IMG/VR virus record: IMGVR_UViG_3300037316_000027
Span: 1-64,000 of that record
Source: a virus
DNA length: 64,000 bases
Reading direction: 5' to 3' (one strand)
The position numbers were made by a program, and so were the translations under genes. The notes beneath the pieces are model-generated. The model made no database searches. It was not told the DNA's origin and saw nothing but the letters and a program-made list of their open reading frames with translations. The first letter of the stretch is position 1; each line of letters starts with the position of its first letter. Shown piece after piece: positions 1,112 to 52,099 of this stretch.

Positions 1112-2479
1112 ATGGCACAACGGACCGACCCGCACCAAGCCCGCGCTCGTGAACTTTGCATCGCTGCCGGGATCGAGCCCGACAGCCGACGCGGAGAAGG
1201 TCGCGGTCACCCTGCATGGACCGAGTACCGCGACGCCGCGCGCAAGGAGATGATCGCAGCCGAACAGGCGGAACTCGCCGCCGATCTAGCCGCCATGTCC
1301 GTGCCGGCGCAAACGGCCGACTACGCTAGCGCGCCGCTGACGATCTTCGGCGAGCACGATGCGCAGACGATCGACCAGATGAAAAACTGCATGAAGGTCG
1401 GCAATGTCGTCGCGGGCGTGATCTGCGCTGACGGGCATCTCGGCTATGCGCAGCCGGTCGGCGGCGTGATCGCCTACGACAAAGGCCACGTCTCGATCTC
1501 GGGGGTCGGGTACGATATCGGTTGCGGCAACAAGGCCGTGCGGCTTGACACGAAGTTCGCTGACATCGCCGAGCACATTCCGACGATCATCCGCGACGTG
1601 CAGAAGACGATCTCGTTCGGCGTCGGTCGCTCGAATGACGACGAACGCGTCGAACATCCGCTGTTCGACAATGCCGAGGCTTGGGCCGACGCGGACATGG
1701 AGGCGTATCGCCCGAAGGCGCAGGCGCAGCTCGGCACGGTCGGATCAGGCAACCACTATGTGGACGTGCTCCGCGACGAGGATGGCTATGTCTGGATCGG
1801 CGTTCACTTCGGCTCGCGCGGTCTGGGCCACACGTCGGCTAGCAAATATATCAAGGCGGTCGGTGGCAGGGACGGCATCAACGTCGCGCCCGCCGTCGTC
1901 GATCTTCACACGGAAGTCGGCGCTCGCTACTACGAGGCGATGAAGCTCGCCGGTAGCTACGCGTCCGCCGGTCGCGACTGGGTGACCGAGCGCGTGCGCC
2001 AGATCATCGGCGGCAACGTCACGATGGAAGTGCACAACCATCACAATTACGCGTGGGAGGAAACGCACGTCATCAACGGTGTCTCCCGCGATCTGCTCGT
2101 GGTCCGCAAGGGCGCGACGCCAGCGTTCCCGGGCCAGCTCGGTTTCGTCGGCGGCTCCATGGGTGACGACGCCGTGATCCTCGAAGGCGTCGATAGCCCG
2201 CAGGCCAAGGCAGCGCTCTATTCCACGGTGCACGGGGCCGGGCGCGTCATGGGCCGCAAGCAGGCCAAGCGCACGTTCACGAAGGCGCAGATGGATCAGT
2301 GGCTACAGGCCCGTGGTGTGACGCTGGTGGGCGCTGATCTCGATGAAAGTCCGATGGCATATCGGAGGCTCCCGGAAGTTCTGGCGCATCACGAGGCGTC
2401 TGTGCGCGTCCTGCACACGCTCCGGCCGTTCGCAGTGGCGATGGCCGGCGAAGGCGAGTTCGATCCATGGAAAGATTGA
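1112..2479 (+). CDS. rtcB: RtcB-family RNA-splicing ligase
   Basis: 455 aa. RtcB joins RNA 2',3'-cyclic-phosphate or 3'-phosphate ends to 5'-OH ends using Mn2+ and GTP. The family signature residues are in order: DIGCG (Asp135, Cys138), GSGNH (His215), HFGSRG (His232), VHNHHN (~308-311) and the guanylylated-histidine motif VHGAGR (His374). The first ~70 residues are an N-terminal extension. Length is typical of the family. It sits directly upstream of a 12-tRNA array, which suggests repair of tRNAs cut by host anticodon nucleases; that role is inferred. Its last codons overlap a tiny membrane-protein ORF. Identity is very secure; the biological target is not. Confidence 0.95.
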   Translation: MAQRTDPHQARARELCIAAGIEPDSRRGEGRGHPAWTEYRDAARKEMIAAEQAELAADLAAMSVPAQTADYASAPLTIFGEHDAQTIDQMKNCMKVGNVVAGVICADGHLGYAQPVGGVIAYDKGHVSISGVGYDIGCGNKAVRLDTKFADIAEHIPTIIRDVQKTISFGVGRSNDDERVEHPLFDNAEAWADADMEAYRPKAQAQLGTVGSGNHYVDVLRDEDGYVWIGVHFGSRGLGHTSASKYIKAVGGRDGINVAPAVVDLHTEVGARYYEAMKLAGSYASAGRDWVTERVRQIIGGNVTMEVHNHHNYAWEETHVINGVSRDLLVVRKGATPAFPGQLGFVGGSMGDDAVILEGVDSPQAKAALYSTVHGAGRVMGRKQAKRTFTKAQMDQWLQARGVTLVGADLDESPMAYRRLPEVLAHHEASVRVLHTLRPFAVAMAGEGEFDPWKD

Positions 2480-2968: not shown

Positions 2969-3047
2969 CTGGGCGTGGGGGAGTTTGGCCGTCCCCGCTA
3001 CTCTCGGACAGTAGAGATCGAAGGTTCAAATCCTTCCGCCCCGACCA
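2969..3047 (+). tRNA. tRNA-Pro(CGG)
   Basis: Anticodon loop CTCGGAC on a perfect 5-bp stem, a GGGG/CCCC D-stem, a perfect T-stem and encoded CCA. The acceptor has one mismatch at pair 2-71. Confidence 0.88.
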
Positions 3048-3105
3048 TTCTCACAACATCGACTATTAGCGCCGCCGCGCAATCGCAAAGCTGGTCCTGA
3101 TCTAT

Positions 3106-3179
3106 ACAGGATTGGTGTAGCGGTAGCACGGCGGTCTCCAAAACCGCTGGCCATGGTTCGAACCCATGATCCTGTGCCA
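3106..3179 (+). tRNA. tRNA-Trp(CCA)
   Basis: Perfect 7-bp acceptor (ACAGGAT/ATCCTGT), anticodon loop CTCCAAA, discriminator G and encoded CCA. Confidence 0.93.
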
Positions 3180-3180
3180 T

Positions 3181-3255
3181 GCGGGTTTGGTGTAACGGTA
3201 GCACAACGGGCTCTGAACCCGTTAGGTCAAGGTTCGAAACCTTGAGCCCGTGCCA
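3181..3255 (+). tRNA. tRNA-Gln(CTG)
   Basis: Anticodon loop CTCTGAA on an ACGGG/CCCGT stem, a perfect T-arm and encoded CCA. The acceptor GCGGGTT/AGCCCGT uses wobble pairs. It lies one base after tRNA-Trp. Confidence 0.92.
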
Positions 3256-3257
3256 AC

Positions 3258-3333
3258 GTCGATGTAGCTCAGCGGTAGAGCAATCCTTTCGTAAGGGGTA
3301 GGTCGCAGGTTCGATCCCATGCCATCGGCACCA
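3258..3333 (+). tRNA. tRNA-Thr(CGT)
   Basis: Acceptor GTCGATG pairs with CATCGGC; anticodon loop TTCGTAA; CCA encoded. The T-stem GCAGG pairs with CC-TGC only if one adenine is bulged, an unusual insertion that may weaken the elbow. Confidence 0.82.
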
Positions 3334-3337
3334 ATTC

Positions 3338-3414
3338 GCCAGTCTAGCTCAGTCAGGTAGAGCGCCGGGCTCATAATCCGGATGTCGTCGGTTCAAATCC
3401 CTCGGCTGGCACCA
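3338..3414 (+). tRNA. tRNA-Met(CAT), elongator-like
   Basis: Acceptor GCCAGTC/GGCTGGC, D-arm GCTC/GAGC, anticodon loop CTCATAA, CCA encoded. The paired 1-72 end and the absence of the GGG/CCC initiator anticodon stem favour an elongator. The T-stem has two mismatches. Ile2 with a modified CAU cannot be excluded. Confidence 0.85.
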
Positions 3415-3457
3415 ATCATCGGCAACTCGTGAGAGCTGCCGACATCTGATAACACAA

Positions 3458-3533
3458 GGGGCGATAGCTCAGATGGGAGAGCACCTGTTCTGCAAGCAGG
3501 GGGTCGCCGGTTCGAGGCCGGCTCGCTCCACCA
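3458..3533 (+). tRNA. tRNA-Ala(TGC) with C33
   Basis: All helices pair and the G3-U70 alanine identity pair is present. The anticodon loop reads TCTGCAA, so position 33 is C rather than the near-universal U. CCA is encoded. Confidence 0.88.
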
Positions 3534-3540
3534 AAGAATG

Positions 3541-3615
3541 CCCCGTGTAGCTCAGCGGTAGAGCAAGCGGTCGATAACCGCTAGGTCGCTGGTTCAAATC
3601 CAGTCACGGGCACCA
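3541..3615 (+). tRNA. tRNA-Ile(GAT) with C33
   Basis: Anticodon loop TCGATAA on a perfect AGCGG/CCGCT stem, so C33 again replaces U33. Six of seven acceptor pairs form, with a C1-C72 mismatch. CCA encoded. Confidence 0.83.
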
Positions 3616-3660
3616 ACAAGGAGACGCGCGTCATGTCATCAAGTAGTAGTCGATCGTTAC

Positions 3661-3748
3661 GGAAGGGTGGCAGAGAGGCAATGCAGCGGCTTGCTAAGCC
3701 GTACTAGGTTTGCGCCTAGCGTGTGTTCGATCCACACCCCTTCCGCCA
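3661..3748 (+). tRNA. tRNA-Ser(GCT)
   Basis: Class II tRNA: acceptor GGAAGGG/CCCTTCC, anticodon loop TTGCTAA, a long variable arm (CTAGG/CCTAG), a perfect T-arm, discriminator G and encoded CCA. Confidence 0.92.
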
Positions 3749-3752
3749 GACT

Positions 3753-3839
3753 GGAGGGTGGCGTGTACGGTCGCACGAACGGTCCCGAAAACCGCGCCCG
3801 GCGCAAGCCGTGATGGTTCAATTCCTTCACCCTCCGCCA
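3753..3839 (+). tRNA. tRNA-Ser(CGA) with C33
   Basis: Class II tRNA: perfect acceptor GGAGGGT/ACCCTCC, variable-arm hairpin CGGC-GCAA-GCCG and encoded CCA. The anticodon loop CCCGAAA again has C33. The T-stem has one mismatch and so does the anticodon stem. Confidence 0.78.
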
Positions 3840-3843
3840 ATCC

Positions 3844-3918
3844 GCAGAGATAGCTCAGAGGTAGAGCGGCACGTTGAAGGCGTGCGCGTCAGTGGTTCGA
3901 TCCCATTTCTCTGCACCA
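3844..3918 (+). tRNA. tRNA-Phe(GAA)
   Basis: Perfect acceptor GCAGAGA/TCTCTGC, anticodon loop TTGAAGG on GCACG/CGTGC, encoded CCA. Confidence 0.92.
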
Positions 3919-3925
3919 CTGTTGT

Positions 3926-4001
3926 TTGGGGATAGCTCAGCCGGTAGAGCGACGCGCTGTTAACGCGTAGGTCGCAGGTTCGAACCCTGCTCCCCGAGCC
4001 A
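3926..4001 (+). tRNA. tRNA-Asn(GTT)
   Basis: Anticodon loop CTGTTAA on ACGCG/CGCGT, perfect T-stem GCAGG/CCTGC, acceptor TTGGGGA/TCCCCGA and encoded CCA. Last tRNA of the array. Confidence 0.92.
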
Positions 4002-9795: not shown

Positions 9796-10061
9796 CCGGA
9801 GAGAGCGCCTTCGTTGTTCATCGCTTGCGATCGAAGCCAGTCGAATATACGGTGACGATCTCGCACTTCGTGCGCGCCGGGCAGTGGGTTATGAGCGTGG
9901 GCGTTGACGATGTTGACGAGGATCGCGAGAACCGGCTCCGCGTCGCCGCCGATCTTCGCGCCGCTGCCGAGTGGATCGAGGAAGACTACGGTTCGCCGCC
10001 TTCGGACGACAACCCAGTCCCGCCGGCTGCATCACGAAATGTTACTCCAGAGCCGCAGTGA
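9792..10061 (+). CDS. Small hypothetical protein, 89 aa
   Basis: The start at 9792 overlaps the previous stop (ATGA). It has an N-terminal beta-rich half and an acidic helix (residues ~40-65), then a Pro-rich tail. An in-frame upstream extension exists but lies inside the preceding gene. Function unknown. Confidence 0.6.
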   Translation: MTGESAFVVHRLRSKPVEYTVTISHFVRAGQWVMSVGVDDVDEDRENRLRVAADLRAAAEWIEEDYGSPPSDDNPVPPAASRNVTPEPQ

Positions 10062-10206
10062 CTTCTCGCGCTGCCCCGTTGAAAATTCATGCAAGTTGTC
10101 CAGCATCGATCGTGTCAAGAAAAACTTTTTGATGCAAGATACCCAATCAAACCGGGCATCTGATCCGCTATTCTATATCGAAACTGGAAAATCCAAAAAG
10201 TCGATT

Positions 10207-10215
10207 TGCTATAAT
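10207..10215 (+). promoter_or_regulatory. Extended -10 promoter
   Basis: TGC-TATAAT (10207-10215) is a perfect extended -10; no good -35 is seen at 16-18 bp. The start would fall near 10222, giving a ~20-nt leader for the gene at 10244. Confidence 0.6.
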
Positions 10216-10493: not shown

Positions 10494-10522
10494 TTGACAT
10501 TCTCAGGGACAAGCTTTAGGTT
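10494..10522 (+). promoter_or_regulatory. Promoter of the 10.5-kb RNA
   Basis: TTGACA (10494-10499), 17 bp, TAGGTT (10517-10522). Downstream is a long region without a credible gene that ends in a strong terminator. Confidence 0.65.
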
Positions 10523-10528
10523 CGGGTG

Positions 10529-10863
10529 ACTGGAGCGGCCCAAGCGAAAACGGGATCAGCCAGTAGCTCGTGCCGCAAGGAGAACGCACTCCGATGAAGA
10601 ACTGAAACGCCGGCCACTCCGGGCCTGCCCTAGCTGGGACCCGGTAGGCGAGAGACAGATAGGGCGCGCTCCGGGAAATCTGGCCGGGGCGCGTAGCGAG
10701 AGGGACGCAGCTCAATAGACAAGGCCCAGTGCACATCGAACTGTGTTTTCCCGGTACGCGGCGTAGGGTGGTTGCCTACGGGACATAGGAGAGTAACTTC
10801 TCTCCGGGAACTACACATAGGAACCGCCCCGGAGATGATCTCTCCCCGGGGCGGTTCTGTTTT
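10529..10863 (+). ncRNA. Candidate novel structured RNA, ~330 nt
   Basis: It is bounded by its own promoter and a strong intrinsic terminator, with no credible ORF. Helices I can draw: 10530-10540 with 10612-10622 (10 of 11 pairs); 10623-10629 with 10643-10649 (7 bp, one G-U); 10664-10674 with 10684-10694 (11 bp, 9-nt loop); a possible pseudoknot between CAGAT at 10656-10660 and ATCTG at 10678-10682, using the loop of the preceding hairpin; 10762-10767 with 10775-10780; 10788-10793 with 10800-10805. A-rich strands separate the helices. I find no RNase P, tmRNA, 6S or group I intron signature. Confidence 0.6.
10821..10863 (+). terminator. Strong intrinsic terminator of the 10.5-kb RNA
   Basis: A perfect 10-bp stem GAACCGCCCC (10821-10830) with GGGGCGGTTC (10848-10857), an internally paired loop, then TGTTTT. 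It lies between converging transcripts, so it may also slow the minus-strand transcript ending at 10919. Confidence 0.85.
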
Positions 10864-15345: not shown

Positions 15346-16284
15346 TTACGCTCGGGTCCGGTGCGCCTTATACCAGTCGTATGTGAGACTTAGGCCCTTC
15401 GCGATCGAATAATCCGGCGCGAAGCCGAGTGCCCTAAGCTTGCTGAGATCAGCGTAGCAGTCCGGGCGGCCGTTCGGCTTGGTTTTATCGAACTGGATGC
15501 GATCGAGGCCCACGCCGCTGATATCTGAAAGCATGCCGGCGACGCGGCGGATGCTGCTCGCTTCGCCGCTGCCGATGTTGATCGCCCCGGATGTGCCCAA
15601 AGCCAGCATGCCGTGCACGATCCGCGCAAGGTCGGCGCTGTAGAGGAAGTCACGCGTCGGCGAGCCGTCTCCCCAGATAGAGACAACAGCATCCGGGTTG
15701 ACCGAGGCATCGTAGAACTTCTTGATCAGGGACGGCAGCACGTGGCCGGTCTCGGTGTTGAACCGATCACGCGGACCATACAAATTGCCGGAGACGAGAT
15801 AGGTGTAATCGAGCCCATGGCTTTCCTTGTACGCTTCGAGCATTGCCAGCATGTGCCGCTTCGCGTGACCGTAGCCGCTCTCCATGTTATGGGGCCGACC
15901 GTCGAAGATGTCGTCTTCTGTGTAAGGCAGTTTCGGCGGCCATGGATAGATCGCATTCGTCCCCATCGCCACGATTTTCTTGACACTGGCGACGACATGA
16001 GCCGAGTGGATCACGTTGGTATTGATCAGTGTGTTGTCGTAGATCGACTTCGCTTGGTTCTTCATGTTGCCCATGATGCCGTAGACGGTCGCGGCCGGAT
16101 GGTAGACGTACTCCGGTTCGATCCGATCGAACATCTTCATCACGGCGATCGGATCGCGGAGATCGCAGTCGCGGCGTGTGACTGGCACGACGCATGTGAG
16201 CCCGTGCGCGCAGAGATGTTCGACGACGGCGGAGCCGGCGAGCCCGTTGGCCCCGGTGACAAGAATACAGGAATTCTGTTTCAT
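15346..16284 (-). CDS. fcl: GDP-L-fucose synthase-like epimerase/reductase
   Basis: 312 aa. An N-terminal GANGLAGSAV NADP-binding motif, a catalytic YGHAK (Tyr-x3-Lys) and the GPRDRFN...HVLPSLI segment typical of GDP-fucose synthase (WcaG/Fcl). The family epimerises and reduces GDP-4-keto-6-deoxymannose; with the Gmd-like gene at 24433 it could complete GDP-L-fucose. In a heptose context it could instead act on a 6-deoxyheptose. ATG 16284 overlaps the upstream stop (ATGA); the frame extends upstream but that part is not coding-like. Confidence 0.85.
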   Translation of the reverse strand: MKQNSCILVTGANGLAGSAVVEHLCAHGLTCVVPVTRRDCDLRDPIAVMKMFDRIEPEYVYHPAATVYGIMGNMKNQAKSIYDNTLINTNVIHSAHVVASVKKIVAMGTNAIYPWPPKLPYTEDDIFDGRPHNMESGYGHAKRHMLAMLEAYKESHGLDYTYLVSGNLYGPRDRFNTETGHVLPSLIKKFYDASVNPDAVVSIWGDGSPTRDFLYSADLARIVHGMLALGTSGAINIGSGEASSIRRVAGMLSDISGVGLDRIQFDKTKPNGRPDCYADLSKLRALGFAPDYSIAKGLSLTYDWYKAHRTRA

Positions 16285-17147
16285 GCTTTTAATCCCTTGG
16301 TAGCCCGGGCAGCAGCTTGCCGCTCGGCCAGAAGTCGTAGCATATACTGACGGTGTCCGGGAGAGATCACGGTCCCGCCGCGAAGCTGTATTGGAGTTGA
16401 GGGCTGATACCGCCCCCACGCTTCCGGTCCGATCGCTTTCTCAAGCCATGAGACCGTGCTGTGGCGAAAGATATCTTTCATCTTGCCGCAGAGATAAGGC
16501 GTCTCGGTCATCAGCTTCGCGCGGGCGACAAGCTCGTCACGTTCCAGCATATCAATCCAGCGGAAGGCCCCATGGAAGCCGAAGTTCTCTGGGTTGCGCG
16601 GGCCAAGCTCCCACGAGAAACACGAGGCCAGCTCGTGGCCGGGCCACTTGAAGCCGCCTGCCAACTCCAGCCCCGCGCGCCGGTTGCGGCAGAGGTCCCA
16701 ATCGGTTGTGACCGGGTGCTCTTTCGGGTGGTCGGCGAGGAACCGGCCCAGACGTTTCGACATGAGGGTGAAGCCGCCATTGCCCACGTCGTGCGGATCG
16801 CCCGGTCGCACGAGCCACGGCGCTCCGATGTAGTCGTAATTGAAAAATTCCGGCCGCCACTTCGCGGGATCGTAGATGCCCGCGTCCCATTCGAGCATCA
16901 GGGCGAAGTCCGTTGTGATGCCGGCGCAGGCGTATTGATAGTAGAACTGTCCGGCCTCGCGCTTGTTGGGAAAGTCCTTGCACAGGATCAGGCGCGCGTC
17001 GAGCCCGTTGAACTCAGCGGGCTTGTCGGTATAGATCAGCACGTCTCCGAAGGTCGCCTTCGAGAGGCAGTCCTCGATCACGCGCTTGGTGATCTTATGG
17101 GCACGCGTCTCGACGAAGAGCAGGGTGCAGCGGGACAGATCGAGCAT
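16281..17147 (-). CDS. DUF5672-type glycosyltransferase-like protein
   Basis: 288 aa. LMLEWDAGI (aspartates in place of DxD), FFNYDYIGAPW and VGNGGFTLMSKR are hallmarks of the DUF5672 family found in polysaccharide clusters. A paralogue lies at 22256-23059. The C-terminal ~80 residues are basic and family-specific. The likely role is transfer of a sugar made by the flanking enzymes; acceptor unknown. Confidence 0.8.
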   Translation of the reverse strand: MLDLSRCTLLFVETRAHKITKRVIEDCLSKATFGDVLIYTDKPAEFNGLDARLILCKDFPNKREAGQFYYQYACAGITTDFALMLEWDAGIYDPAKWRPEFFNYDYIGAPWLVRPGDPHDVGNGGFTLMSKRLGRFLADHPKEHPVTTDWDLCRNRRAGLELAGGFKWPGHELASCFSWELGPRNPENFGFHGAFRWIDMLERDELVARAKLMTETPYLCGKMKDIFRHSTVSWLEKAIGPEAWGRYQPSTPIQLRGGTVISPGHRQYMLRLLAERQAAARATKGLKA

Positions 17148-17148
17148 T

Positions 17149-18129
17149 TCACCGCGCTCCCAGTTTCTTCATGGTGCGGACATTGTAGTACCAGTCGTCG
17201 GTGATGCTGTCCGGAAGAAGGTGATTGTCGAACGCGCGGACCAGATCATAGACCCCGTCTTCGATGCCGCGCTTCGGCACGAAGCCGAGCACGCGCATTA
17301 TCTTGTCCGAATTGAGCCGATACGAGCGCGGGTCATCGGAGGGCGTCGTCACTATTTCGAGACGATTGTCCCCAACTATGCGGTTCACGGTGTTGGCGAT
17401 ATCCTTGATCGAGCGGTTCTCAAAACCGATGTTGAATATCTCGCCCTGTACCTTGTTGTGTGGGGCGACCAGCATCACTAAGTAGGCGTCCACCATGTCA
17501 TCGATATGGAGATTAGGGCGCATCTGGTCGCCCCCGAATACGGTGATGCGACCGGTCTTGACTGCCTGATTGGTAAGAAGGTTGACGGACAGATCGAACC
17601 GGGTGCGCGGGCTGTAGCCGCAGATTGTGGCCGGACGCAGGATCGTGCACGTGAAGTCATCGGCCCGATGCTCCAACAGCAGCGGCTCGCACATGCCCTT
17701 GAACTTGTTGTAGAGGGACACCGGCACAAGCGGATGATCCTCGGTCACATCAGGGGAGTTGCTAATGCCGTAGACAGAGCCCGACGAGGCTAGGATGAAG
17801 CGCTGCACGCCTGCCATCTTGGCCGCCAATACCATCGGCTGGAAGCAATCATAGTTGGTCGTCTGGGAGAGCTGTTCGTCAAGTTCTACGCTCGCGTCGT
17901 TCGAGATGCAGGCCAGATGGATGACTGCGTACTGATGCTCGAAGTGACGCGAAAGCTGTTCGGTGTCCCTGATATCGCCCTGCACGACGTTTAGGCGCGG
18001 ATGGTTGGGGAGCCGACAGCCGAAGTAGAGCATGTCGTAGACAGTGACAGTGTAGCCTTCGTCAAGAAGGCGCGGCACAAGGACGTGCCCCACGTATCCG
18101 GCACCGCCAGTCACAAGAACATTTGTCAT
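17149..18129 (-). CDS. NAD-dependent epimerase/dehydratase (extended SDR)
   Basis: 326 aa. The GGAGYVGHVL dinucleotide motif, SSGSVYG and YNKFK (Tyr-x3-Lys) are all present. It belongs to the UDP-glucose 4-epimerase/dehydratase-like extended SDR group, acting on nucleotide sugars. In a heptose cluster it could epimerise a heptose (HldD-like) or make a ketosugar. The start overlaps the upstream stop by one base. Confidence 0.85.
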   Translation of the reverse strand: MTNVLVTGGAGYVGHVLVPRLLDEGYTVTVYDMLYFGCRLPNHPRLNVVQGDIRDTEQLSRHFEHQYAVIHLACISNDASVELDEQLSQTTNYDCFQPMVLAAKMAGVQRFILASSGSVYGISNSPDVTEDHPLVPVSLYNKFKGMCEPLLLEHRADDFTCTILRPATICGYSPRTRFDLSVNLLTNQAVKTGRITVFGGDQMRPNLHIDDMVDAYLVMLVAPHNKVQGEIFNIGFENRSIKDIANTVNRIVGDNRLEIVTTPSDDPRSYRLNSDKIMRVLGFVPKRGIEDGVYDLVRAFDNHLLPDSITDDWYYNVRTMKKLGAR

Positions 18130-19229
18130 CAGAAGGGTCCTTTGAAAGACGGATCGGGCTTATCGATAGGAACGCCCTCACGGGCAGCGATCACGGCAGC
18201 CCGCGCCTCAGCGAATTGTAATCGCCGGACAGGCCCGGCAGTATCGTCGCAGAGGCGCTCCGTTGCATCAATGATATCTGCGGAGCTTGGATAGTAGGCT
18301 TCGGCAAGAGCGATCGAACTGGGGGTTGGGTGGTCCGGCAGACCGATACGCTCAACGGGCCGGTGAAGCATCTGGGGATCGCGCTCCGCGATCGAGGCGA
18401 TGATCTCCGCTCCCGCTCCGTATTGCCGGGAGCCGATGTCACACGTGATGAGCCGTCCTGTCCGGCGTACTGAGGCCATGATCAGATCGAGACTGAGGGG
18501 GCGCAGAACTCTCGCATCGATAACTTCAACGAAACAGCCGACATCCGCAAGCGCCTTCGCGGCCCGAATTGCCTCTAGGACCATATAGGAAGTCGCGACG
18601 ATCGTGGCGCAGTTTCCCTTCATGACGACCCGAGAGCCGACGAGCGGCACTGTGTAGTGTTCGCGCGGGACGATGCCTGTCACGTGATGCAGCCATCTGT
18701 GCTCAAGCATGATGACGGGGTTCTGGTCTTCGACGGCGGCGAGGATCATTCCCTTGAATTCATACGGGGTCGAAGGCATCACAACTTTGAGGCCCGGGAC
18801 GAGAGCGAACATCGCTTCCAAGCTTTGCGAATGCTGCGGCCCTTGGCCCCAGCCGCGACCGATGATCATCCGCACGAGCAGCGGCACCTTGTGCTTGCCC
18901 GTGCTGACGTAGCTGCTCTTCGCAGCCGCGTTGAACAGTTGCTCAAGACACAGGAGCCCGAAGTCTACGCGACGATGGGACATGATCGGGTGCAGTCCCA
19001 TCAAGGCACTGCCGATCGCCATCCCGGTCATCCCGTTTTCGGAGATGGGCATTTCGATGACGCGCTCCGGACCGAACTCGGCCGGGAGGCCCTTGGTCGT
19101 GCCGAAAACGGCGTCGAGAGCCGTGACGCCCTCGCCAGTCAGATAGACGCCCGGGTTATCGCGCAGGGCGATCGTCAGTGCCTCCCGGATTGCTTCGACC
19201 GAAGTGATGGCGTCACGATCATCCTGCAT
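18129..19229 (-). CDS. TPP-dependent dehydrogenase E1 beta-type subunit
   Basis: 366 aa. It resembles the beta subunit of pyruvate/2-oxoacid dehydrogenase E1: an N-terminal E(G)-V-x-A-L-D-A-V-F segment, IEMPISENGMTG (catalytic/TPP-contact Glu), GRGWGQGPQHSQSLEAMF and a transketolase C-terminal domain with V-E-V-I-D-A-R-V-L-R-P-L. It pairs with the E1 alpha domain of the next gene upstream (11-bp overlap). No E2/E3 genes are near, so the pair probably performs a free TPP carboligation or decarboxylation in sugar synthesis. Confidence 0.85.
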   Translation of the reverse strand: MQDDRDAITSVEAIREALTIALRDNPGVYLTGEGVTALDAVFGTTKGLPAEFGPERVIEMPISENGMTGMAIGSALMGLHPIMSHRRVDFGLLCLEQLFNAAAKSSYVSTGKHKVPLLVRMIIGRGWGQGPQHSQSLEAMFALVPGLKVVMPSTPYEFKGMILAAVEDQNPVIMLEHRWLHHVTGIVPREHYTVPLVGSRVVMKGNCATIVATSYMVLEAIRAAKALADVGCFVEVIDARVLRPLSLDLIMASVRRTGRLITCDIGSRQYGAGAEIIASIAERDPQMLHRPVERIGLPDHPTPSSIALAEAYYPSSADIIDATERLCDDTAGPVRRLQFAEARAAVIAAREGVPIDKPDPSFKGPF

Positions 19230-20736
19230 AGACGTGATCTCCTGCGGTCTCGGGATCAGGGAACGGCGCGGCCTCGGCGAATGCAAATGCCTCAGCGATC
19301 TCTGCCGTGATCTCCTGCCGTAGCGTATTGATGGTGCTGCTCAGCGCGGGTTGGAGCTTCAGCAACGGGTCTGTCGCCTTCCACGCTTCGAACTCTTCCG
19401 GTGTCCGATAGCCGAGCGTATGGTCGAAGTTGGGGCCGCAGTGTTCGCGCAATCGATAGGTAGTAGCTTCGATGAAGCTCGGCCCATTCCCGGCGCGCGC
19501 CTTGGCAACGGCGACGGTCATGGCGTCGCGGACGGCGAGCACGTCGTTGCCGTCCACGCGCTGAGCCTCGATACCATGCGACTGGGCGAGCCCGAGAATG
19601 GGCCGCTCCGGCTGCCGTTCGTGCAGCGGCGAGTAGCCGGCGTAGAGATTGTCTTCGCAGACGAAGATAACGGGCAGCTTGCGCAGGGCCGCGAAATTCA
19701 GGCTTTCGTGAAACGCGCCCTCTTCGACGGCGGCGTCGCCCATGTAGACCACGGAGACATCGTCCGTGCCCTTGTACTTCATCGCGAACGCAGCGCCGAC
19801 CCCGATCGGGATCGAGGCCCCGACGATCGGCACACTGACTAGAACCCCGGCCGAGGGATCGAACAGATGCATCGATCCGCCCCGGCCTCCGCAACATCCG
19901 GCCTCGCGGCCCATCATCTCGCAGATCATGGTTTTGAGATCGCCGCCTTTGGCAAGGTAGTGGGCGTGGCAGCGATGCGTGGAAACGATCTGATCGGACG
20001 GGCGCAGCGCGGCGCTGACACCGACCGCGACGGCCTCTTGCCCGACTGACAGATGGATTGGACAGCGCATTTTCTGGTCCGCGTAGCGGGTCGCGATCTC
20101 TTCCTCGATCATGCGAATGCGAAGCATGTCGCGGTAGAGCTTGTTGGGGCGGTGCTCATTTTGCTCCCACACCGCGATAGCAAGATCGAGGATCGCGTGA
20201 CAAATCGTCAAGTGTCCGATCTCGACGAAGCCATAGCGGTTATCGGGGAGCCAGAAATTGATATCACCTGTCTTGCGGAGCGGGTTGTCCGCCTCGAAGC
20301 CGGAGAGCGTGATGACATGCATTAACTTGGCGCGCGCGGCAGCGACGGCCGCCAGAATGTTCGGTGACTTTCCGGAGCTGGAGATCGCGATCAGCAAATC
20401 TCCTTCGCGTCCGTGTCGTTCGACCGGCAGCGCGAAACTCTGCTCGTAGCCGAGATCGTTGGTGAGGCACGTGAGTTGCGGCCCGTCGTTGAAACAGAGA
20501 GCGGCGAACCCACCGTTTTTGAGCCAGTCCGTGGCCATATGACTGGCGATAGCGGCCGAGCCGCCATTGCCTACGAAGATGACACGGCCGTCGTTCGATT
20601 TGACGGCCAGCGATAAGCCAACTGCCCGCGTGAACGCTTCCTCGCTATCGATCGCTTCCGTAGCCCCGAGGTTATTCGCCTTGATTTGTGTGCCAAGAAA
20701 TCCGAGACGGGCGAAGTATCTGACCAGATCGTTCAT
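19219..20736 (-). CDS. Fusion: SIS (GmhA-like) domain + TPP-dependent E1 alpha domain
   Basis: 505 aa. Residues 1-195 are a sugar isomerase domain with GNGGSAA (56-62), His66, SSSGKSPN (119-126) and VEIGHLTICH (171-180), like phosphoheptose isomerase GmhA, though the expected Glu four residues after His66 is Asp70. Residues ~200-505 are an E1 alpha subunit with H-L-S-V-G-Q-E-A, a GDAA...EDN TPP motif (333-363) and the phosphorylation-loop region. I know of no common enzyme with this fusion. It likely links heptose-phosphate formation with a two-carbon transfer by E1 alpha/beta. Sequence continuity across the junction is clean. Confidence 0.85.
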   Translation of the reverse strand: MNDLVRYFARLGFLGTQIKANNLGATEAIDSEEAFTRAVGLSLAVKSNDGRVIFVGNGGSAAIASHMATDWLKNGGFAALCFNDGPQLTCLTNDLGYEQSFALPVERHGREGDLLIAISSSGKSPNILAAVAAARAKLMHVITLSGFEADNPLRKTGDINFWLPDNRYGFVEIGHLTICHAILDLAIAVWEQNEHRPNKLYRDMLRIRMIEEEIATRYADQKMRCPIHLSVGQEAVAVGVSAALRPSDQIVSTHRCHAHYLAKGGDLKTMICEMMGREAGCCGGRGGSMHLFDPSAGVLVSVPIVGASIPIGVGAAFAMKYKGTDDVSVVYMGDAAVEEGAFHESLNFAALRKLPVIFVCEDNLYAGYSPLHERQPERPILGLAQSHGIEAQRVDGNDVLAVRDAMTVAVAKARAGNGPSFIEATTYRLREHCGPNFDHTLGYRTPEEFEAWKATDPLLKLQPALSSTINTLRQEITAEIAEAFAFAEAAPFPDPETAGDHVYAG

Positions 20737-22259
20737 TTGAGAAGCGTCCTTATGTAGGCAAGGGTCTGGGCCTTCTCCACCGGCTTGCGATGGCCGAGAA
20801 TGCCGACTTTGATAGCGCCGACAGCATTGCCGATGAAGCTGACCGCTTCCAGATCGTCCGAGACGGCCGCTAGTGGCGATGTGACGGCGAAGAATGCATC
20901 ACCAGCCCCCATGGTGTCAACCACTCGCTTCGTGAAGGCAGGCACGATAACCGCGTCGTCTTCGCCGAGCCAGCTTGCGCAGCCCTCGCTCCCGTGCGTC
21001 AGGATCAGGCGATCCACGTCGATCTTCTCCCGTAGAGCGGCAGCGACGGCGCTCAGGTCCGTGTCCTTGGTCGAGATTGCGAGACGTGCTTCTGGTGCGT
21101 CAAGACAAAGGTAATCGGCCCTCGGATACTTGGTCGCGAGGTTATAGCCAAAGTTGCCGGCGTTGCTCTGCACATTGAGCGCAAGAAATTTCGAGTTCTC
21201 CAACAGGGCCGCGCGGACCCCCGGCGTGAGCAGTCCGTGACCGAAGTCATTCACGATCACCACATCGAAATCTTTCGCCCGTTGCTCGATCTTTTCGACG
21301 AACCGATCGTTCAAGCTTCCAGTCAGGGGCGAGGCGTCCATGGTGTAAACTTCGAACAGCTTGCGCAGGTACGCGCTGTCGATGAAACGCGTCTTGCGCA
21401 CGGTAGGCATTCCGGGGCGGATGATAGAGCGCACCGTAACGTTCGGTCGGATCGAGCTATGTATGAGGTCTTCGTAGCTCTCTACCTCGCCGAGGCAGGT
21501 AAACACTTCCACGTTGGCGCAGAAGTCGGCCACGTGATTGGCAGTGGCGATAGCGCCACCAGCGAAGACTTCCCTGTTGAGCCGCAGTGTCGCCAGCACA
21601 TTCTCCTTCGGCGGCTTGCCAAGCGGGGCAACGTAGGTGTACTCGTCGATGATCGCTTCCCCGACCACCAGTACGTTCAATCCCGCGATCTGTGAGAGCA
21701 ACTCGGGGATGCGCTTGGCGAGACCCCGCTCTCGGGCGTGATCCAGATATTCGCGCAATTCGAGGTTCGACGTATCGAGATATTGGTTGATCAGGGCGGA
21801 AGAGCTGAAGGTGATGTCGTCGGTGAAGTGGATGCGACCGCCGTGGCTCTCAACGGCGCGCTGCTCCGCAATGATGTTGCCCGTGATGTCCGTGCTCGTG
21901 TCCTTGTAGTCAGGACCCTTGACGTAAACATCGGGCATGATCGCGTCGATCACGCTGACCGCACTTCCGGCGTGAGTGATGACGACGCCGCCGACGCATC
22001 CGATCGCGCCGACCATCTCCGCTCGCAAGTCGTGCGGAAAGTGAGGGCGCTCGGGACCCTTGTTGACAAACTCGTCAGCCGTGACGGTCACCAGCAAAAC
22101 ATCGCCCTGTCGGCGCGCTTCCTCGAAGTAGCGGACGTGGCCCAGATGCAGGAGATCGAAGACGCCGTTGGTCAACACGACGCGCTGACCCGTGTTACGG
22201 CATACTCTCGCATACTCGGTTAGCTCGGCGAGAGTTTTGATCTTCGACTTCGCGCTCAT
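20733..22259 (-). CDS. HldE-like bifunctional enzyme with reversed domain order
   Basis: 508 aa. Residues ~5-150 are a cytidylyltransferase-fold nucleotidyltransferase (GVFD 32-35, HLGH 38-41). Residues ~170-508 are a PfkB-type sugar kinase with the anion-hole motif GAGDAF near the C-terminus. E. coli HldE has kinase first and adenylyltransferase second; here the order is swapped. Expected activity is phosphorylation of heptose-7-phosphate at C1 and nucleotidyl transfer giving an NDP-heptose. ATG 22259 overlaps the upstream stop; 93 extra upstream codons are not coding-like. Confidence 0.85.
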   Translation of the reverse strand: MSAKSKIKTLAELTEYARVCRNTGQRVVLTNGVFDLLHLGHVRYFEEARRQGDVLLVTVTADEFVNKGPERPHFPHDLRAEMVGAIGCVGGVVITHAGSAVSVIDAIMPDVYVKGPDYKDTSTDITGNIIAEQRAVESHGGRIHFTDDITFSSSALINQYLDTSNLELREYLDHARERGLAKRIPELLSQIAGLNVLVVGEAIIDEYTYVAPLGKPPKENVLATLRLNREVFAGGAIATANHVADFCANVEVFTCLGEVESYEDLIHSSIRPNVTVRSIIRPGMPTVRKTRFIDSAYLRKLFEVYTMDASPLTGSLNDRFVEKIEQRAKDFDVVIVNDFGHGLLTPGVRAALLENSKFLALNVQSNAGNFGYNLATKYPRADYLCLDAPEARLAISTKDTDLSAVAAALREKIDVDRLILTHGSEGCASWLGEDDAVIVPAFTKRVVDTMGAGDAFFAVTSPLAAVSDDLEAVSFIGNAVGAIKVGILGHRKPVEKAQTLAYIRTLLK

Positions 22260-23059
22260 TTTCCACGGCTCTCCCAAGCGAGGGAGGGGCGGATCACAGG
22301 GACGCCGCCGCGCACGAAGCTGACATCGCCGTCCGGCTGGTGGGACATCATGTCGAGATGGGTCGGCATCTTGGGGTCCACCGTGTTCTCCCGCATGAGG
22401 CGCACCCGCTCGGCGAGGCGCTCGCCCTCCAGCACTTGAGGGAAGTTGAAACTGTCGTGGAACATGAAGTGCTTCGATGTCAGTGACGGGCGGGTATACT
22501 CGAAAGCGAGCCGGGAGGCAAGCTGTTCGTCGGGCCATTTGAACCCGTAGCGCTCAAGCGCCGGCCGATAGACGATGGAGAGGGTCGTGTCGTCGTTGCC
22601 CTCGAACGGCACCTGATCGTCGGACAGCTTGAACTCGTCCGGGTGATCCTTCAAGAATTGCATCAGCCGCTTCGAGCGCAGCCCGCAACCGTTGCCGACG
22701 TTGTAGTTGCCCGGGGGCGTCCACCACGGGGCTCCGATGTAGTCGTATTCCAGAAATTCGTCGGTCCACATCTCCGGGTTGGTGATCCAGCAGTCCCACT
22801 CCGTGAGCAAGAAATGGCTTGTCTTCAGGAAGGGCGCGAGATCGGACCACATCCAGCGGCCGAAGACTTTGCTGCTAGGCCATTTGGGGACCTGTACGAA
22901 GCGTACATCCGGAAAGCCCTCCAGCGGTTCGTCGCAGAAGATCACCACGTCTCCGTAGTCAGCCGCTTCGAGACTGTCGCGCAGCGACAGGGCCGCCAGA
23001 TCGTGGCATACGATATCAACCATCATGAGGGTCACGTCAGGCAGTTGCAGCTTGCTCAT
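22256..23059 (-). CDS. DUF5672-type glycosyltransferase-like protein, second copy
   Basis: 267 aa. LLTEWDCWI, FLEYDYIGAPWW and VGNGCGLRSKR match the paralogue at 16281-17147. The C-terminal part shares a F-K-W-P-x-(E/D)-x-L-A-S helix with it. The two copies flank the sugar-synthesis genes, suggesting successive transfers to one glycan. Confidence 0.8.
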   Translation of the reverse strand: MSKLQLPDVTLMMVDIVCHDLAALSLRDSLEAADYGDVVIFCDEPLEGFPDVRFVQVPKWPSSKVFGRWMWSDLAPFLKTSHFLLTEWDCWITNPEMWTDEFLEYDYIGAPWWTPPGNYNVGNGCGLRSKRLMQFLKDHPDEFKLSDDQVPFEGNDDTTLSIVYRPALERYGFKWPDEQLASRLAFEYTRPSLTSKHFMFHDSFNFPQVLEGERLAERVRLMRENTVDPKMPTHLDMMSHQPDGDVSFVRGGVPVIRPSLAWESRGK

Positions 23060-23748
23060 TGAACTTCTCCCCTAGCGGCTATGAGCGCGGCCCACGCTTC
23101 GCGCGTCTTGGCCCCGTGGATGAAAATGTATCCGTCGTTCTTGACGGCATTGATCCCGACCGTGAGATGCTCTGGGACAGTCGAGAAGTGGCCGCCGACC
23201 GCGCCCTCGAAGCCACGCCACGGCAGCCCAGCCGCGTAGGCCAGTTGCACCATGTAGTGATCGATGTTGAGCAGCCGTGGATCGTAGACGATCTTGTCGG
23301 CGCTCGCGAGCATCGCCTCGATCGTTTTGCGCGACAGAAAATACGGAGGCTGGAATGCGACGTGCGGAAGGGTCTCGTCGAGATACGGGTCCGGGTCCGC
23401 GTCAGTCGCTACCATGGACCATACAAGGTCCGGCTCGGCATAGAGATAGGCGGGCAGTTCTGGCGTGAGGCACGCGCTGTCCGCGTCGTTGATGAAGAAA
23501 TACTTCTCCGGGTAGCTCAAGAGGATTTCAAGGTGCCGACGCTGACGCTCCAGCGATGGAATGCCCGTGTAGGCGCGCGCGCCGCCGAACCTGTTCTCGA
23601 CGCCGGGATGGATGATCTCTACGCGGCTATCGTCTGGCGACAGGATGGTGACCGGCCGACCGTGATGTATGTGAAGGCCAAGGTTACCCTGCACGAGGGG
23701 ATGATCCCCCGCGTAGCAACAGACGGCTACCCGCGTGTCCTCGTTCAT
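23056..23748 (-). CDS. Glycosyltransferase-like protein, tandem paralogue A
   Basis: 230 aa. Starts [14 protein letters not shown]; contains F-I-N-D-A-D-S (DxD-type metal/nucleotide motif), [14 protein letters not shown] and a C-terminal I-F-I-H-G. About half of its residues are identical to the next gene upstream. Probably a GT-A-fold glycosyltransferase. ATGA overlaps on both sides place it firmly in the operon. Confidence 0.7.
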   Translation of the reverse strand: MNEDTRVAVCCYAGDHPLVQGNLGLHIHHGRPVTILSPDDSRVEIIHPGVENRFGGARAYTGIPSLERQRRHLEILLSYPEKYFFINDADSACLTPELPAYLYAEPDLVWSMVATDADPDPYLDETLPHVAFQPPYFLSRKTIEAMLASADKIVYDPRLLNIDHYMVQLAYAAGLPWRGFEGAVGGHFSTVPEHLTVGINAVKNDGYIFIHGAKTREAWAALIAARGEVQ

Positions 23749-24449
23749 GCGGTCAACTTCCCGACTGCCCCGAGGAAGGTTCGTCGTGCGACTACAAGGG
23801 CTCGCATGTCTTCAGGCTTCTTGATCCCGTGGAAAATACTGATGCCGTCGCTGAGGGCGAGGCGCAATGCCAGCGAGGGGTGACAACAAACACAACTCTC
23901 GAACCTGCGCCACGGCAGCCCGGCCGCGTAGGTCAATTGAACCATGTAGTAGTCGATGAAGGGCATCATGTCGAGAGATGGCACGACCTTGTCGGCGCTC
24001 GCGAGCATCGCCTCGATCGTTTTGCGGGAGAGAAAGTAAGGCGGCTGGAACGCGACGTGGGGCCAGCCCTTGGGGAAGGTTGCCTGATGCTGAGGGATGT
24101 CGTCGTTGACTTGGTTCGACCAGACGAGATCAGGTTCGGCATAGAGGTAGGGCGGAAATTCCGGATCGAGACAAACGCTGTCGGCATCGTGGATCATGAA
24201 GTGTGTCTCAGGAAACTCCAGAAGGATTTCGAGATGACGGCGCTCACGCTCCAGCGTGTGACCGCCAGTGTGCCCGGCCAATCCGCCATGACGGTTATCG
24301 ACGCCGGGAATGACGACGGGGCTGTCCTCGGGGGAGAGGATTACGACCGGGCATTCGTGATGCAGATAGAGATCAAGATTTTCTCTGACCACTTGCGCAT
24401 CGCCGGCATAGCAACAGACCGCGACGCGGGTGTCAGAGTTCATCGTCAT
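23745..24449 (-). CDS. Glycosyltransferase-like protein, tandem paralogue B
   Basis: 234 aa. Same architecture as 23056-23748: N-terminal [16 protein letters not shown], the identical [14 protein letters not shown] block, and F-H-G-I-K near the end. A recent tandem duplication with divergence in the acceptor-side regions. Confidence 0.7.
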
Positions 24450-25467
24450 AGACCTTACCGGCTTTCAGATCGCTAACGACCATTTCGTGAACGAGTTCTT
24501 CGAAGCCGACCTTGGGCCGCCATCCCAGAACGCGCCGGGCCTTGGACGCGTCGCCTTTGAGGAAGTCAACTTCGGTCGGACGGAAGTATTTGGGGTCTAT
24601 ACTGACAAGAGCCTTCCCTGTCAAGTCGCTGAAGCCTACTTCGTCCGCTCCCTCCCCTTTCCAGACGATCGGCTGTCCGATCAGGGCGAAAGCGGTCTCC
24701 ACGAACTCGCGGACAGAATGGGCCTCTCCCGTAGCGATTACATAGTCGTCCGGCTTGTCCTGCTGGAGCGCCAACCACATTGCTTCGACGTAGTCCTTGG
24801 CATGGCCCCAATCGCGCACGGCGTTGAGGTTGCCGAGCTGGAGATGCTCCGACCGGCCTTGGTGGATCGCGGCGACAGCCTGCGTGATCTTGCGCGTGAC
24901 GAACGTCGGACCGCGACGCGGGCTCTCGTGATTGAACAGGATGCCATTGCTGGCGTGCATGCCGTAGGCCTCCCGGTAGTTGACCGTGATCCAGTAGGCG
25001 TAGAGCTTCGCAACGCCATAGGGTGAGCGGGGCTTGAAGGGGGTCTTCTCGTCGAGTATCGGCCATGTCTGGAAATTCAGTTGATCGCCGTACATCTCTG
25101 ACGTGCTCGCCTGATAGAGACGTGTCTTCAGGCCGAGCGTGTTGACAGCTTCAAGCAGCCTCAGCGCCCCGATCGCATCCGCGTTAGCAGTATACTCAGG
25201 CGTCTCAAAGCTGACTTGCACATGGGACTGAGCCGCGAGATTGTAAATCTCATCTGGAGCCACATCATGTATAATGCGAGTGAGATTTGATCCATCTGTC
25301 ATGTCCCCGTAGTGCAGCTTCAGGTCCGGCAGATGATCGATACGCGATGTGTTGAACGAAGACGCGCGTCGTTTGAGACCGTGGACTTCATAGCCCTTGC
25401 CGAGCAACAGCTCCGCGAGATAGCTGCCGTCCTGCCCGGTAACTCCGGTGATCAATGCGCGTTTCAT
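24433..25467 (-). CDS. gmd: GDP-mannose 4,6-dehydratase-like protein
   Basis: 344 aa. [12 protein letters not shown] (GxxGxDG, typical of GMD), [17 protein letters not shown] (Tyr-x3-Lys) and [10 protein letters not shown] are classic. The reaction is GDP-mannose to GDP-4-keto-6-deoxymannose; homologues in Campylobacter and Yersinia act on GDP-heptose to give 6-deoxyheptose. Pairs with the Fcl-like gene at 15346. ATG 25467 is chosen because it matches the family N-terminus; it overlaps the upstream stop. Confidence 0.93.
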
Positions 25468-25808
25468 TCGAAAACTCCCTCTAAGACTATTTCTCCCTTC
25501 ACGATCGAACCATGAAAGAGGCATGTCGGATGTTTGCGGCCGTGACCACCGCTTCTCGTGTTATCGATACTGGGGATCAAAGTCAGACGATCGGGCCAGC
25601 TTGCGCCGTCTGGAAGGATGTTCGCTTGCCAACGATGTGTCTTTTCATCTTGAAGACCGAGCCCTAACTTGATCGAGACCCGGAATGGAGGACCGCACGC
25701 CGGGCACGTGAAAGTGAGATCATACTCATCAATGAGGACGCCGCCTGTCTCCGGTGTAAAACCCCGAACGCATTGTCGCCATTCTGGACTAAGCTCTATG
25801 AGTTTCAT
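25464..25808 (-). CDS. Hypothetical protein with CPAC motif, 114 aa
   Basis: A C-P-A-C pair and C-terminal His/Cys residues (K-H-P-T-C-L-F-H-G) could bind zinc. The W-x-x-R-L-T-L-x-P-S-I...F-H-G-x-I arrangement is reminiscent of DUF6527-type phage/bacterial proteins, but I am not sure. It is tightly coupled to gmd. Confidence 0.55.
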
Positions 25809-47739: not shown

Positions 47740-48606
47740 TCACATATTGACGCCGGTCGTGCCGTTACTGGCCCCGGCACCCTGCGAACATGCTGTCTGT
47801 AGCGCGGTCCCGGTGGCTGTTGTGGCTCCCGAATATGTATAGGAATTGGTAGTCGTGGAGTTCACTCCGATCATGATAATGCCGACAGTTGGATTACCCG
47901 CAGAGCCGCCTCTCAGAGCCCCCGTTTGTAGAGCGGTGCTATTGGCGGTGGTGGCCCCGGCATACGTATAGGAGTTGGTGGCGGTGTTGGCAGAGGTGCC
48001 GCCTAGGGGAAAGATACCAATAGCTGAATTACCCACGCCACCGTCTGAGGGACCCAGTACTGATTGTAGACTAGTGCCAGCGGCCACTATGTCGCCGGAA
48101 TAGGTATACGCCCTAGTGGTGGAGGTTCCTTCGCCGACAGCAAAAACGCCTATCGTTGACATGCCCGCAGCCGCACCACGATACTCGGCATTAGTTAGGG
48201 TAGTCCCGCTTGCGCACGTATCACCAGAATACGTATACTTGTCGGTCGTGGCGCTGAATTGGCCGCACGCCAAAATCCCGACCGTCGCATTTCCCGCAGC
48301 AGCGCCCGAAGAGGTAACGGCATTTGGTAACGCCGCTCCGGCAACACACGTATCCCCGGCAAAAGTATATTTGTCACTCGTGTTAAATCCGGACCCGTGA
48401 GCAAAAATGCCCTTTGTCGCAGTACCAGCAGCACACCCCTCAAGAAAATTATTTGATGGGAGAGCCGTGGCAACGGTAGTCGATCCGCCCGCAAACAGAT
48501 ACTTGTTCGTAGTGGTCGTGAAATTGCCAACAGCGAAAATGGCGAGCGTCCCGCTCGTCGTCGTCGCGATTTCCGCAATTAGCAATGGTCCTACGAGCCC
48601 GACCAT
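47740..48606 (-). CDS. Repeat adhesin-like virion protein (kelch-type repeats)
   Basis: 288 aa. Six ~43-residue repeats with the pattern T-x-x-Y-x-(Y/F)-(S/A)-G-x-T, A-x-G-T-x-L, A-A-G-N-x-T-x-G-I-(F/L) follow one another from ~30 to 280. This could fold as a beta-propeller. Strongly Ser/Thr/Gly/Ala-rich and surface-like. Located beside the collagen-like fibres. Confidence 0.75.
   Translation of the reverse strand: MVGLVGPLLIAEIATTTSGTLAIFAVGNFTTTTNKYLFAGGSTTVATALPSNNFLEGCAAGTATKGIFAHGSGFNTSDKYTFAGDTCVAGAALPNAVTSSGAAAGNATVGILACGQFSATTDKYTYSGDTCASGTTLTNAEYRGAAAGMSTIGVFAVGEGTSTTRAYTYSGDIVAAGTSLQSVLGPSDGGVGNSAIGIFPLGGTSANTATNSYTYAGATTANSTALQTGALRGGSAGNPTVGIIMIGVNSTTTNSYTYSGATTATGTALQTACSQGAGASNGTTGVNM

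Positions 48607-50131: not shown

Positions 50132-50135
<4 letters not shown>
48606..50135 (-). CDS. Collagen-like tail fibre protein 1
   Basis: 509 aa. Globular N-terminal ~120 residues, then short Gly-X-Thr collagen-like blocks (G-A-T, G-V-T triplets) that alternate with globular parts; a ~100-residue domain (residues ~263-375) recurs in the next gene. The C-terminal ~100 residues ([17 protein letters not shown]) resemble a fibre tip domain. Triplets carry Thr in the third position nearly throughout. Confidence 0.85.

Positions 50136-52095
<1,960 letters not shown>

Positions 52096-52099
<4 letters not shown>

What the first reader, a model, noticed from the sequence alone, without database searches (positions are those of the whole stretch)
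10494..10863. A ~330-nt promoter-to-terminator structured RNA of no known class
Seen: TTGACA-N17-TAGGTT at one end, a 10-bp GC stem with a T-run at the other, no credible ORF between them, and several helices I can pair by hand. These include a 10-of-11 outer helix, an 11-bp hairpin and a possible pseudoknot CAGAT/ATCTG. Known classes considered and not matched by eye: RNase P, tmRNA, 6S, group I introns, GOLLD, ROOL. Inference: a free-standing phage RNA, possibly expressed early or constitutively, lying at the junction of the two transcription arms.
Basis: partly seen in the sequence, partly recalled or inferred. Interest (0 to 1): 0.85.

Follow-up and report, generated by a model that had tools for sequence, protein, structure and literature searches.

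The report
Phage RNA with built-in micro-gene
The stretch encodes a member of a previously uncatalogued family of folded RNAs, found here in very different bacterial viruses, in which a ribosome start site with a one- or two-codon 'gene' is fused to a conserved knotted RNA fold, suggesting a viral RNA that works by loading a ribosome onto itself.

Summary
Rfam 15 gave only sub-threshold chance hits, the best being the terminator hairpin. The promoter, the boundaries and the proposed CAGAT/ATCTG pseudoknot need correcting.

Pattern and covariance-model searches found the same core (window 10628-10729) in 16 other viral contigs: one syntenic sister phage (L004), one other phage (L060), and others that include T4-like phages. 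A model trained only on that third group finds the window core at E = 1.5e-11. Across 14 sequences 97.1% of pair cells are standard pairs and 16 of 23 pairs change on both sides; slid controls pair at most 55%. The true pseudoknot is CUGG 10680-10683 with CCAG 10726-10729.

Every copy with an intact 5' end also starts with a Shine-Dalgarno sequence, AUG, 0-2 codons and a stop (window AUGAAGAACUGA, 10594-10605). The peptide is not conserved but the layout is. The window and L004 copies are followed by a terminator-like hairpin and a convergent gene, so they regulate no downstream gene in cis.

I read it as a new RNA class that loads a ribosome on a minigene at the foot of a pseudoknotted core. 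Its function is inferred, not shown.

The parts
10577..10605 (+). Minigene: Shine-Dalgarno AAGGAG (10577-10582), AUG AAG AAC UGA (10594-10605)
   Evidence: Sequence. SD + AUG + 0-2 codons + stop present in 12/12 homologues with complete 5' end; per-sequence shuffle P 0.009-0.126
10610..10622 (+). Small hairpin CCGG-CCACU-CCGG just downstream of the minigene stop
   Evidence: Read from sequence; similar hairpins in L004 (CCGG/CUGG) and L060; in the other group this position holds AGUAGGUUCNCC instead
10628..10664 (+). Helix A: CCCUA (10628-10632) with UAGGG (10660-10664), enclosing the conserved GGCG..A internal loop
   Evidence: Aligned by independent model R2; 5 of 7 pairs of this helix covary in A3
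10665..10693 (+). Hairpin B, 10 bp, 9-nt loop GAAAUCUGG (10675-10683)
   Evidence: 8 of 8 counted pairs covary; loop conserved as a GAA-plus-CYGG type loop
10700..10713 (+). Hairpin C: GAG / CUC closing the conserved loop GGACGCAG
   Evidence: GAG/CUC versus GGG/CCC covaries; loop near-invariant
10680..10729 (+). Pseudoknot: CUGG (10680-10683, loop B) with CCAG (10726-10729, in AAGGCCCAG)
   Evidence: 100% of cells paired in 14 sequences, pair types CCGG/CCGG, CUGG/CCAG, CCAG/CUGG, CCGG/CUGG
10748..10810 (+). 3' three-way junction (outer 10748-10754/10804-10810; hairpins 10762-10780 and 10788-10803) with invariant UACGCGGC, GGGACAUA and GUAACU
   Evidence: Window versus L004: 94.4% cells paired, 4 both-side changes in 18 pairs; not found in L060, L065, L067
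10821..10863 (+). Terminator-like hairpin (12 bp) followed by TGTTTT
   Evidence: Fold; the L004 homologue also ends in a hairpin with CTTTCTC. Loop too long and T-run too short for the consensus scan
10028..10215 (+). Conserved promoter/operator-like block of the operon that the RNA may end
   Evidence: Alignment with L004, L005, L006: palindrome TCAAGAAAAACTTTTTGAT, extended -10 TTTGCTATAAT

Best explanation
Shown by sequence comparison: this is one member of a new family of phage RNAs with two invariant parts. The 5' part is a minigene (Shine-Dalgarno, AUG, 0-2 codons, stop) whose stop lies 4 to about 20 nt before the core. The second part is a pseudoknotted core of about 105-130 nt (helix A, hairpin B with a 9-nt loop, hairpin C with loop GGACGCAG, and 3' AAGGCCCRG pairing back to loop B). 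The window and L004 copies add a 3' three-way junction and a terminator-like hairpin. Inferred: a ribosome initiates on the minigene, makes at most a tripeptide, and terminates at the foot of the core. Its roughly +15-nt footprint reaches the first hairpin. The RNA thereby docks on a ribosome, and the core acts on that ribosome or is protected and delivered by it. It works as a self-contained, trans-acting ribosome-docking RNA during infection, most likely by holding or diverting ribosomes to bias translation towards the phage. The peptide is irrelevant.
For: Homology and fold: covariation 16/23 pairs, 97.1% paired against at most 55% in slid controls; out-of-sample model R2 finds window, L004 and L060 at E 1.5e-11, 6.7e-11 and 2.1e-12. 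Non-coding: most members have no frame open through the core; between L065 and L067 the RNA is 183/185 identical while the UvsX region is 927/1017 and the upstream gene 170/226. Minigene: 12/12 complete members, all three stop codons used, 0, 1 or 2 codons, second codon varies (AAG, AAC, ACC, GUA, GGA, GAU, ACU), AUG at a nearly fixed distance from the core start (-10 in window/L004/L060, -19 to -25 in the rest). No gene to regulate: window and L004 copies are followed by a terminator-like hairpin and a convergent gene. Start of transcript: promoter-like sequences sit just before the minigene in L073, L085, L086 and L091 (my reading).
Against: No expression or ribosome data exist for any member. 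Most of the other phages carry a small gene with its own SD soon after the RNA, which also fits a cis-acting leader. The 3' junction is known only from window and L004. The steps after ribosome loading are inference.
Confidence: 0.45

Rival explanations
1. Cis-acting leader: a ribosome on the minigene refolds the core and thereby controls termination or translation of the next gene (a general ribosome-sensing attenuator); the window and L004 copies are strays.
For: In L060, L065, L067, L073, L085, L086 and L112 the core ends tens of nucleotides (up to about 110) before the SD of a small gene; promoter-like sequences sit directly before the minigene in several.
Against: The downstream genes differ even between close relatives (L065 versus L067). 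Window and L004 have no downstream gene. L091 has a promoter-like sequence between the RNA and the next gene.
Confidence: 0.25
2. The minigene only protects the 5' end of the RNA (a parked ribosome shields it from RNases), while the core does something unrelated to translation, such as binding a protein.
For: The peptide is not conserved; the core fold is rich in conserved loops.
Against: The near-fixed spacing of AUG and stop to the core suggests a tighter link than generic protection.
Confidence: 0.17
3. Dipeptidyl-tRNA drop-off sink like the lambda bar minigenes: repeated start-stop translation ties up tRNA and peptidyl-tRNA hydrolase.
For: Minigenes of 2-3 codons with good SDs; dipeptidyl-tRNAs drop off at about 10% on average in E. 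coli (PMC10192219).
Against: The second codon is not conserved and L085 has none at all (AUG-UGA); does not explain the conserved core.
Confidence: 0.08
4. Guide or scaffold RNA (TnpB/Cas12f omega-RNA, retron) or an intron.
For: Core 3' end is followed by sequence that differs between relatives, as after a guide scaffold.
Against: No TnpB/Cas12f zinc domain in the window's genome record or in the L004, L096, L085 and L060 records; no Rfam match; downstream genes have their own SDs.
Confidence: 0.04
5. Chance structure or unrecognised coding sequence.
For: High GC content makes strong folds easy (z only -2.27).
Against: Covariation and the out-of-sample model; no frame open through the core in most members.
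Confidence: 0.01

Closest known systems
GOLLD / ROOL (large structured phage and prophage RNAs)
   Same: Phage-encoded, structured, non-coding, often near tRNA genes (10 tRNAs lie about 6.5 kb upstream here)
   Different: Much shorter; no sequence or covariance match; carries a minigene. Their functions are also unknown (PMC7567579)
manA RNA (RF01745)
   Same: Pseudoknot-bearing RNA of marine T4-like phages, in potential 5' UTRs (PMC2864571)
   Different: Tested directly: no match to any core at E <= 10
Phage lambda bar minigenes
   Same: SD + AUG + one codon + stop on a phage transcript (recalled, not tested)
   Different: No conserved structured core is known there; second codon here is not conserved
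Ribosome-mediated attenuator leaders (trp, tna, erm type)
   Same: Short translated ORF upstream of an RNA fold
   Different: Here the peptide is at most 3 aa and not conserved; the window copy has no downstream gene
tmRNA
   Same: Structured RNA with a tiny ORF and pseudoknots, acts on ribosomes
   Different: No tRNA-like domain found (ARAGORN); ORF is start-stop at the 5' end

Membership tests
Any Rfam 15 family | Covariance-model score above the gathering threshold | tested here: not met
   cmscan of window, L004, L060, L065, L067, L073, L085, L086, L113: none over the core; best sub-threshold hit is the terminator hairpin
manA (RF01745) | Match to the manA covariance model | tested here: not met
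   11 records, none over cut-off, none at the core
tmRNA | tRNA-like domain and tag ORF | tested here: not met
   ARAGORN finds only tRNAs in the window
TnpB/Cas12f omega-RNA | Associated TnpB/Cas12f-like nuclease | tested here: not met
   PF07282 absent from five records, some of them fragments
Lambda bar-type minigene | SD-AUG-codon-stop | tested here: met
   12/12 complete members
Lambda bar-type minigene | Peptidyl-tRNA drop-off toxicity in Pth-deficient cells | not testable with these tools
   Needs an experiment
Ribosome-mediated attenuator leader | Controlled gene downstream in the same transcript | tested here: inconclusive
   Present in most other homologues, absent in window and L004
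New family defined here | Helix A, hairpin B, hairpin C and loop-B pseudoknot with covariation | tested here: met

The most novel reading that the evidence does not exclude
A new kind of viral RNA that programs a ribosome: a start-stop minigene loads a ribosome which, on terminating, is captured or modified by a pseudoknotted core, giving phages an RNA-only device to control the host translation machinery in trans.
Probability: 0.35. Interest if true: 0.93.

Novelty: categorically new. Interest (0 to 1): 0.8.

Why it matters
Very few natural RNAs combine a translated micro-ORF and a separate conserved pseudoknotted fold in one otherwise non-coding molecule. A family shared by a siphovirus-type lineage and T4-like phages, more conserved than the neighbouring genes, must do something useful in infection. 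Because it is small (about 150-330 nt) and self-contained, it can be tested at once in vitro with purified ribosomes. It would add to the short list of RNA-based ways by which phages handle host translation. It also shows that a fixed-spacing start-stop ORF can be a diagnostic of an RNA class, a feature that ORF-free intergenic scans would miss.

Tried and rejected
- blastn of the RNA or its homologues in 50,697 phage and 72,556 plasmid records: only chance hits or none.
- First viral pattern had a wrong spacing and found only chance hits. Patterns on the 3' junction found only L004 plus chance hits in viral and bacterial collections.
- Ribosome bypass or IRES-like entry into the downstream ORF: the frame relative to the core differs between families and in L112 stops follow at once (my reading).
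- manA, TnpB/Cas12f guide RNA, coding sequence.
- RNA in related phages at the same junction: L003, L005, L006, L007, L008, L009, L010, L011 searched with model R1, none found.
- Six named phages (C48C1, HTVC008M, Melnitz, S-RIM2, RDJL3, T4) searched with R1: none.

Full report
WHERE IT IS. The window lies in a 126,820-base virus record. Its terminase is up to 59% identical over most of its length to siphovirus terminases such as that of Roseobacter phage RDJL3. The RNA sits where rightward genes (metallophosphoesterase-like, acetyltransferase-like, an 80-aa ORF) meet leftward genes (a lysis-type cassette with a GH108 endolysin).

OBSERVATION. The region 10494-10863 has no ordinary ORF of note on the + strand and folds strongly, though only moderately so for its composition (z = -2.27). 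No Rfam family matches. The claimed promoter is weak in its -10 and fails the consensus scan. The L004 alignment shows no trace of it. What is conserved between the window and L004, and more loosely in L005 and L006, is a block at 10028-10215 with a palindrome TCAAGAAAAACTTTTTGAT and an extended -10 TTTGCTATAAT. In L005/L006 that block precedes a SprT-like ORF (weak Pfam hit) followed directly by a terminator-like hairpin, with no RNA. So in this lineage the RNA may be the 3' part of a longer transcript, or may be started separately.

HOMOLOGUES. The metallophosphoesterase brought in 27 phage loci. One, L004, carries a clear homologue in the same position. Patterns from the parts shared by the two (GGACGCAG..CA..AAGGCCCNG and relaxed forms) then found homologues far away: L060; L065, L067, L073, L078, L084, L086, L089, L090, L091, L096 and L112/L113, several of which are T4-like by gp32, UvsX, gp33 or RNase H-type neighbours (gene names partly my reading); L111; and L085, a contig whose record number suggests an isolate genome. 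The other pattern hits lie in protein-coding sequence or score below the model's noise level, and were dropped. Model R1, searched over about 1.27 million bases of fetched sequence, finds 17 members and nothing else convincing.

IS IT ONE FAMILY? Model R2 was built only from ten sequences outside the window, L004 and L060. It finds L060, the window and L004 at E 2.1e-12, 1.5e-11 and 6.7e-11 and finds one place in the window's whole genome record. Caveat: those ten sequences were fetched by patterns that contain about 18 specified bases of the window, so part of the score is selected. Helix A and hairpin B were not part of any pattern.

STRUCTURE. On the 14-sequence alignment, helix A, hairpin B, hairpin C and the loop-B pseudoknot give 97.1% standard pairs; 16 of 23 pairs have both-side changes and the covariation score is 0.582. 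Slid controls give at most 55.4%, 8 pairs and 0.135; no shuffle out of 500 reaches the observed pairing, covariation or both-side counts. The pseudoknot occurs as CCGG/CCGG, CUGG/CCAG (window, L085, L111), CCAG/CUGG (L091) and CCGG/CUGG with one G-U (L096). The structure was chosen on these same sequences, so the slid control flatters it somewhat. The 3' three-way junction of the window and L004 shows 4 compensatory changes in 18 pairs with invariant connecting strands. With only two sequences the shuffle test is weak (20/500).

THE MINIGENE. All 12 members with a complete 5' end have a Shine-Dalgarno sequence, AUG, and a stop after 0, 1 or 2 codons: window AUG AAG AAC UGA; L004 AUG AAG UAA; L060 AUG AAC UAG; L065/L067 AUG ACC UGA; L073/L086 AUG GUA UGA; L090 AUG GGA UGA; L091 and L112 AUG GAU stop; L096 AUG ACU UAG; L085 AUG UGA. 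Per-sequence probability in dinucleotide shuffles is 0.009-0.126. For nine well-separated members the product is about 3e-14 if they were independent, which they are not fully. Stop codon identity, stop position and second codon vary while the layout and the distance to the core are kept. That is the signature of selection for initiation and termination at this place, not for a peptide or a base-paired motif.

NOT A PROTEIN. Most members have no frame open through the core. L065 and L067 are 99% identical over the RNA but 91% over the UvsX region and 75% over the upstream gene.

MECHANISM. Shown: conserved fold, conserved pseudoknot, conserved start-stop ORF, no downstream gene in two members. 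Inferred: a ribosome initiates and terminates at the foot of the core; the core then acts on, or together with, that ribosome. I prefer a self-contained trans-acting RNA because the window and L004 copies have nothing to regulate in cis, the downstream genes of the others are unrelated, and promoter-like sequences sit right before the minigene in several members (my reading). A cis-acting ribosome-sensing leader is the strongest rival.

NOVELTY. No Rfam family, no manA, no TnpB guide, no tmRNA. A literature search of open-access papers found no description of such an RNA; subscription journals and preprints were not searchable. I therefore call it a new class, with function unproven.

Noticed in passing
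window 10028-10215: Noncoding block conserved with L004 and, loosely, L005/L006: palindrome TCAAGAAAAACTTTTTGAT and an extended -10 promoter-like TTTGCTATAAT; looks like an operator/promoter.
   Followed up: partly
L009 4080-4400: At the same convergent junction a related phage has a GC-rich block without Rfam match that ends in a tRNA T-arm-like GGGGGTTCGACACCCTCC; fold not better than shuffles.
   Followed up: partly
L005 12959-13525 and L006: SprT-like ORF (weak Pfam hit) under the same promoter-like block where the window has the 80-aa ORF plus the RNA.
   Followed up: partly
window 1112-2479 and 2969-4001: RtcB RNA ligase gene (Pfam E 7.6e-66) just before an array of ten tRNA genes.
   Followed up: partly
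window 15346-25524: Long cluster of sugar-nucleotide and glycosylation-type genes (epimerases, dehydratase-like, transketolase-like) next to the lysis cassette.
   Followed up: no
window 48606-52099: Collagen-like GATGVTG repeats in two leftward ORFs, probably tail or appendage proteins.
   Followed up: no
L073 1232-1340, L090 1023-1130: Extra structured-looking 3' segment after the core, absent in the close relative L086 at an indel right after GGUAC; possibly related to the window's three-way junction (GACAUA shared) but not proven.
   Followed up: partly
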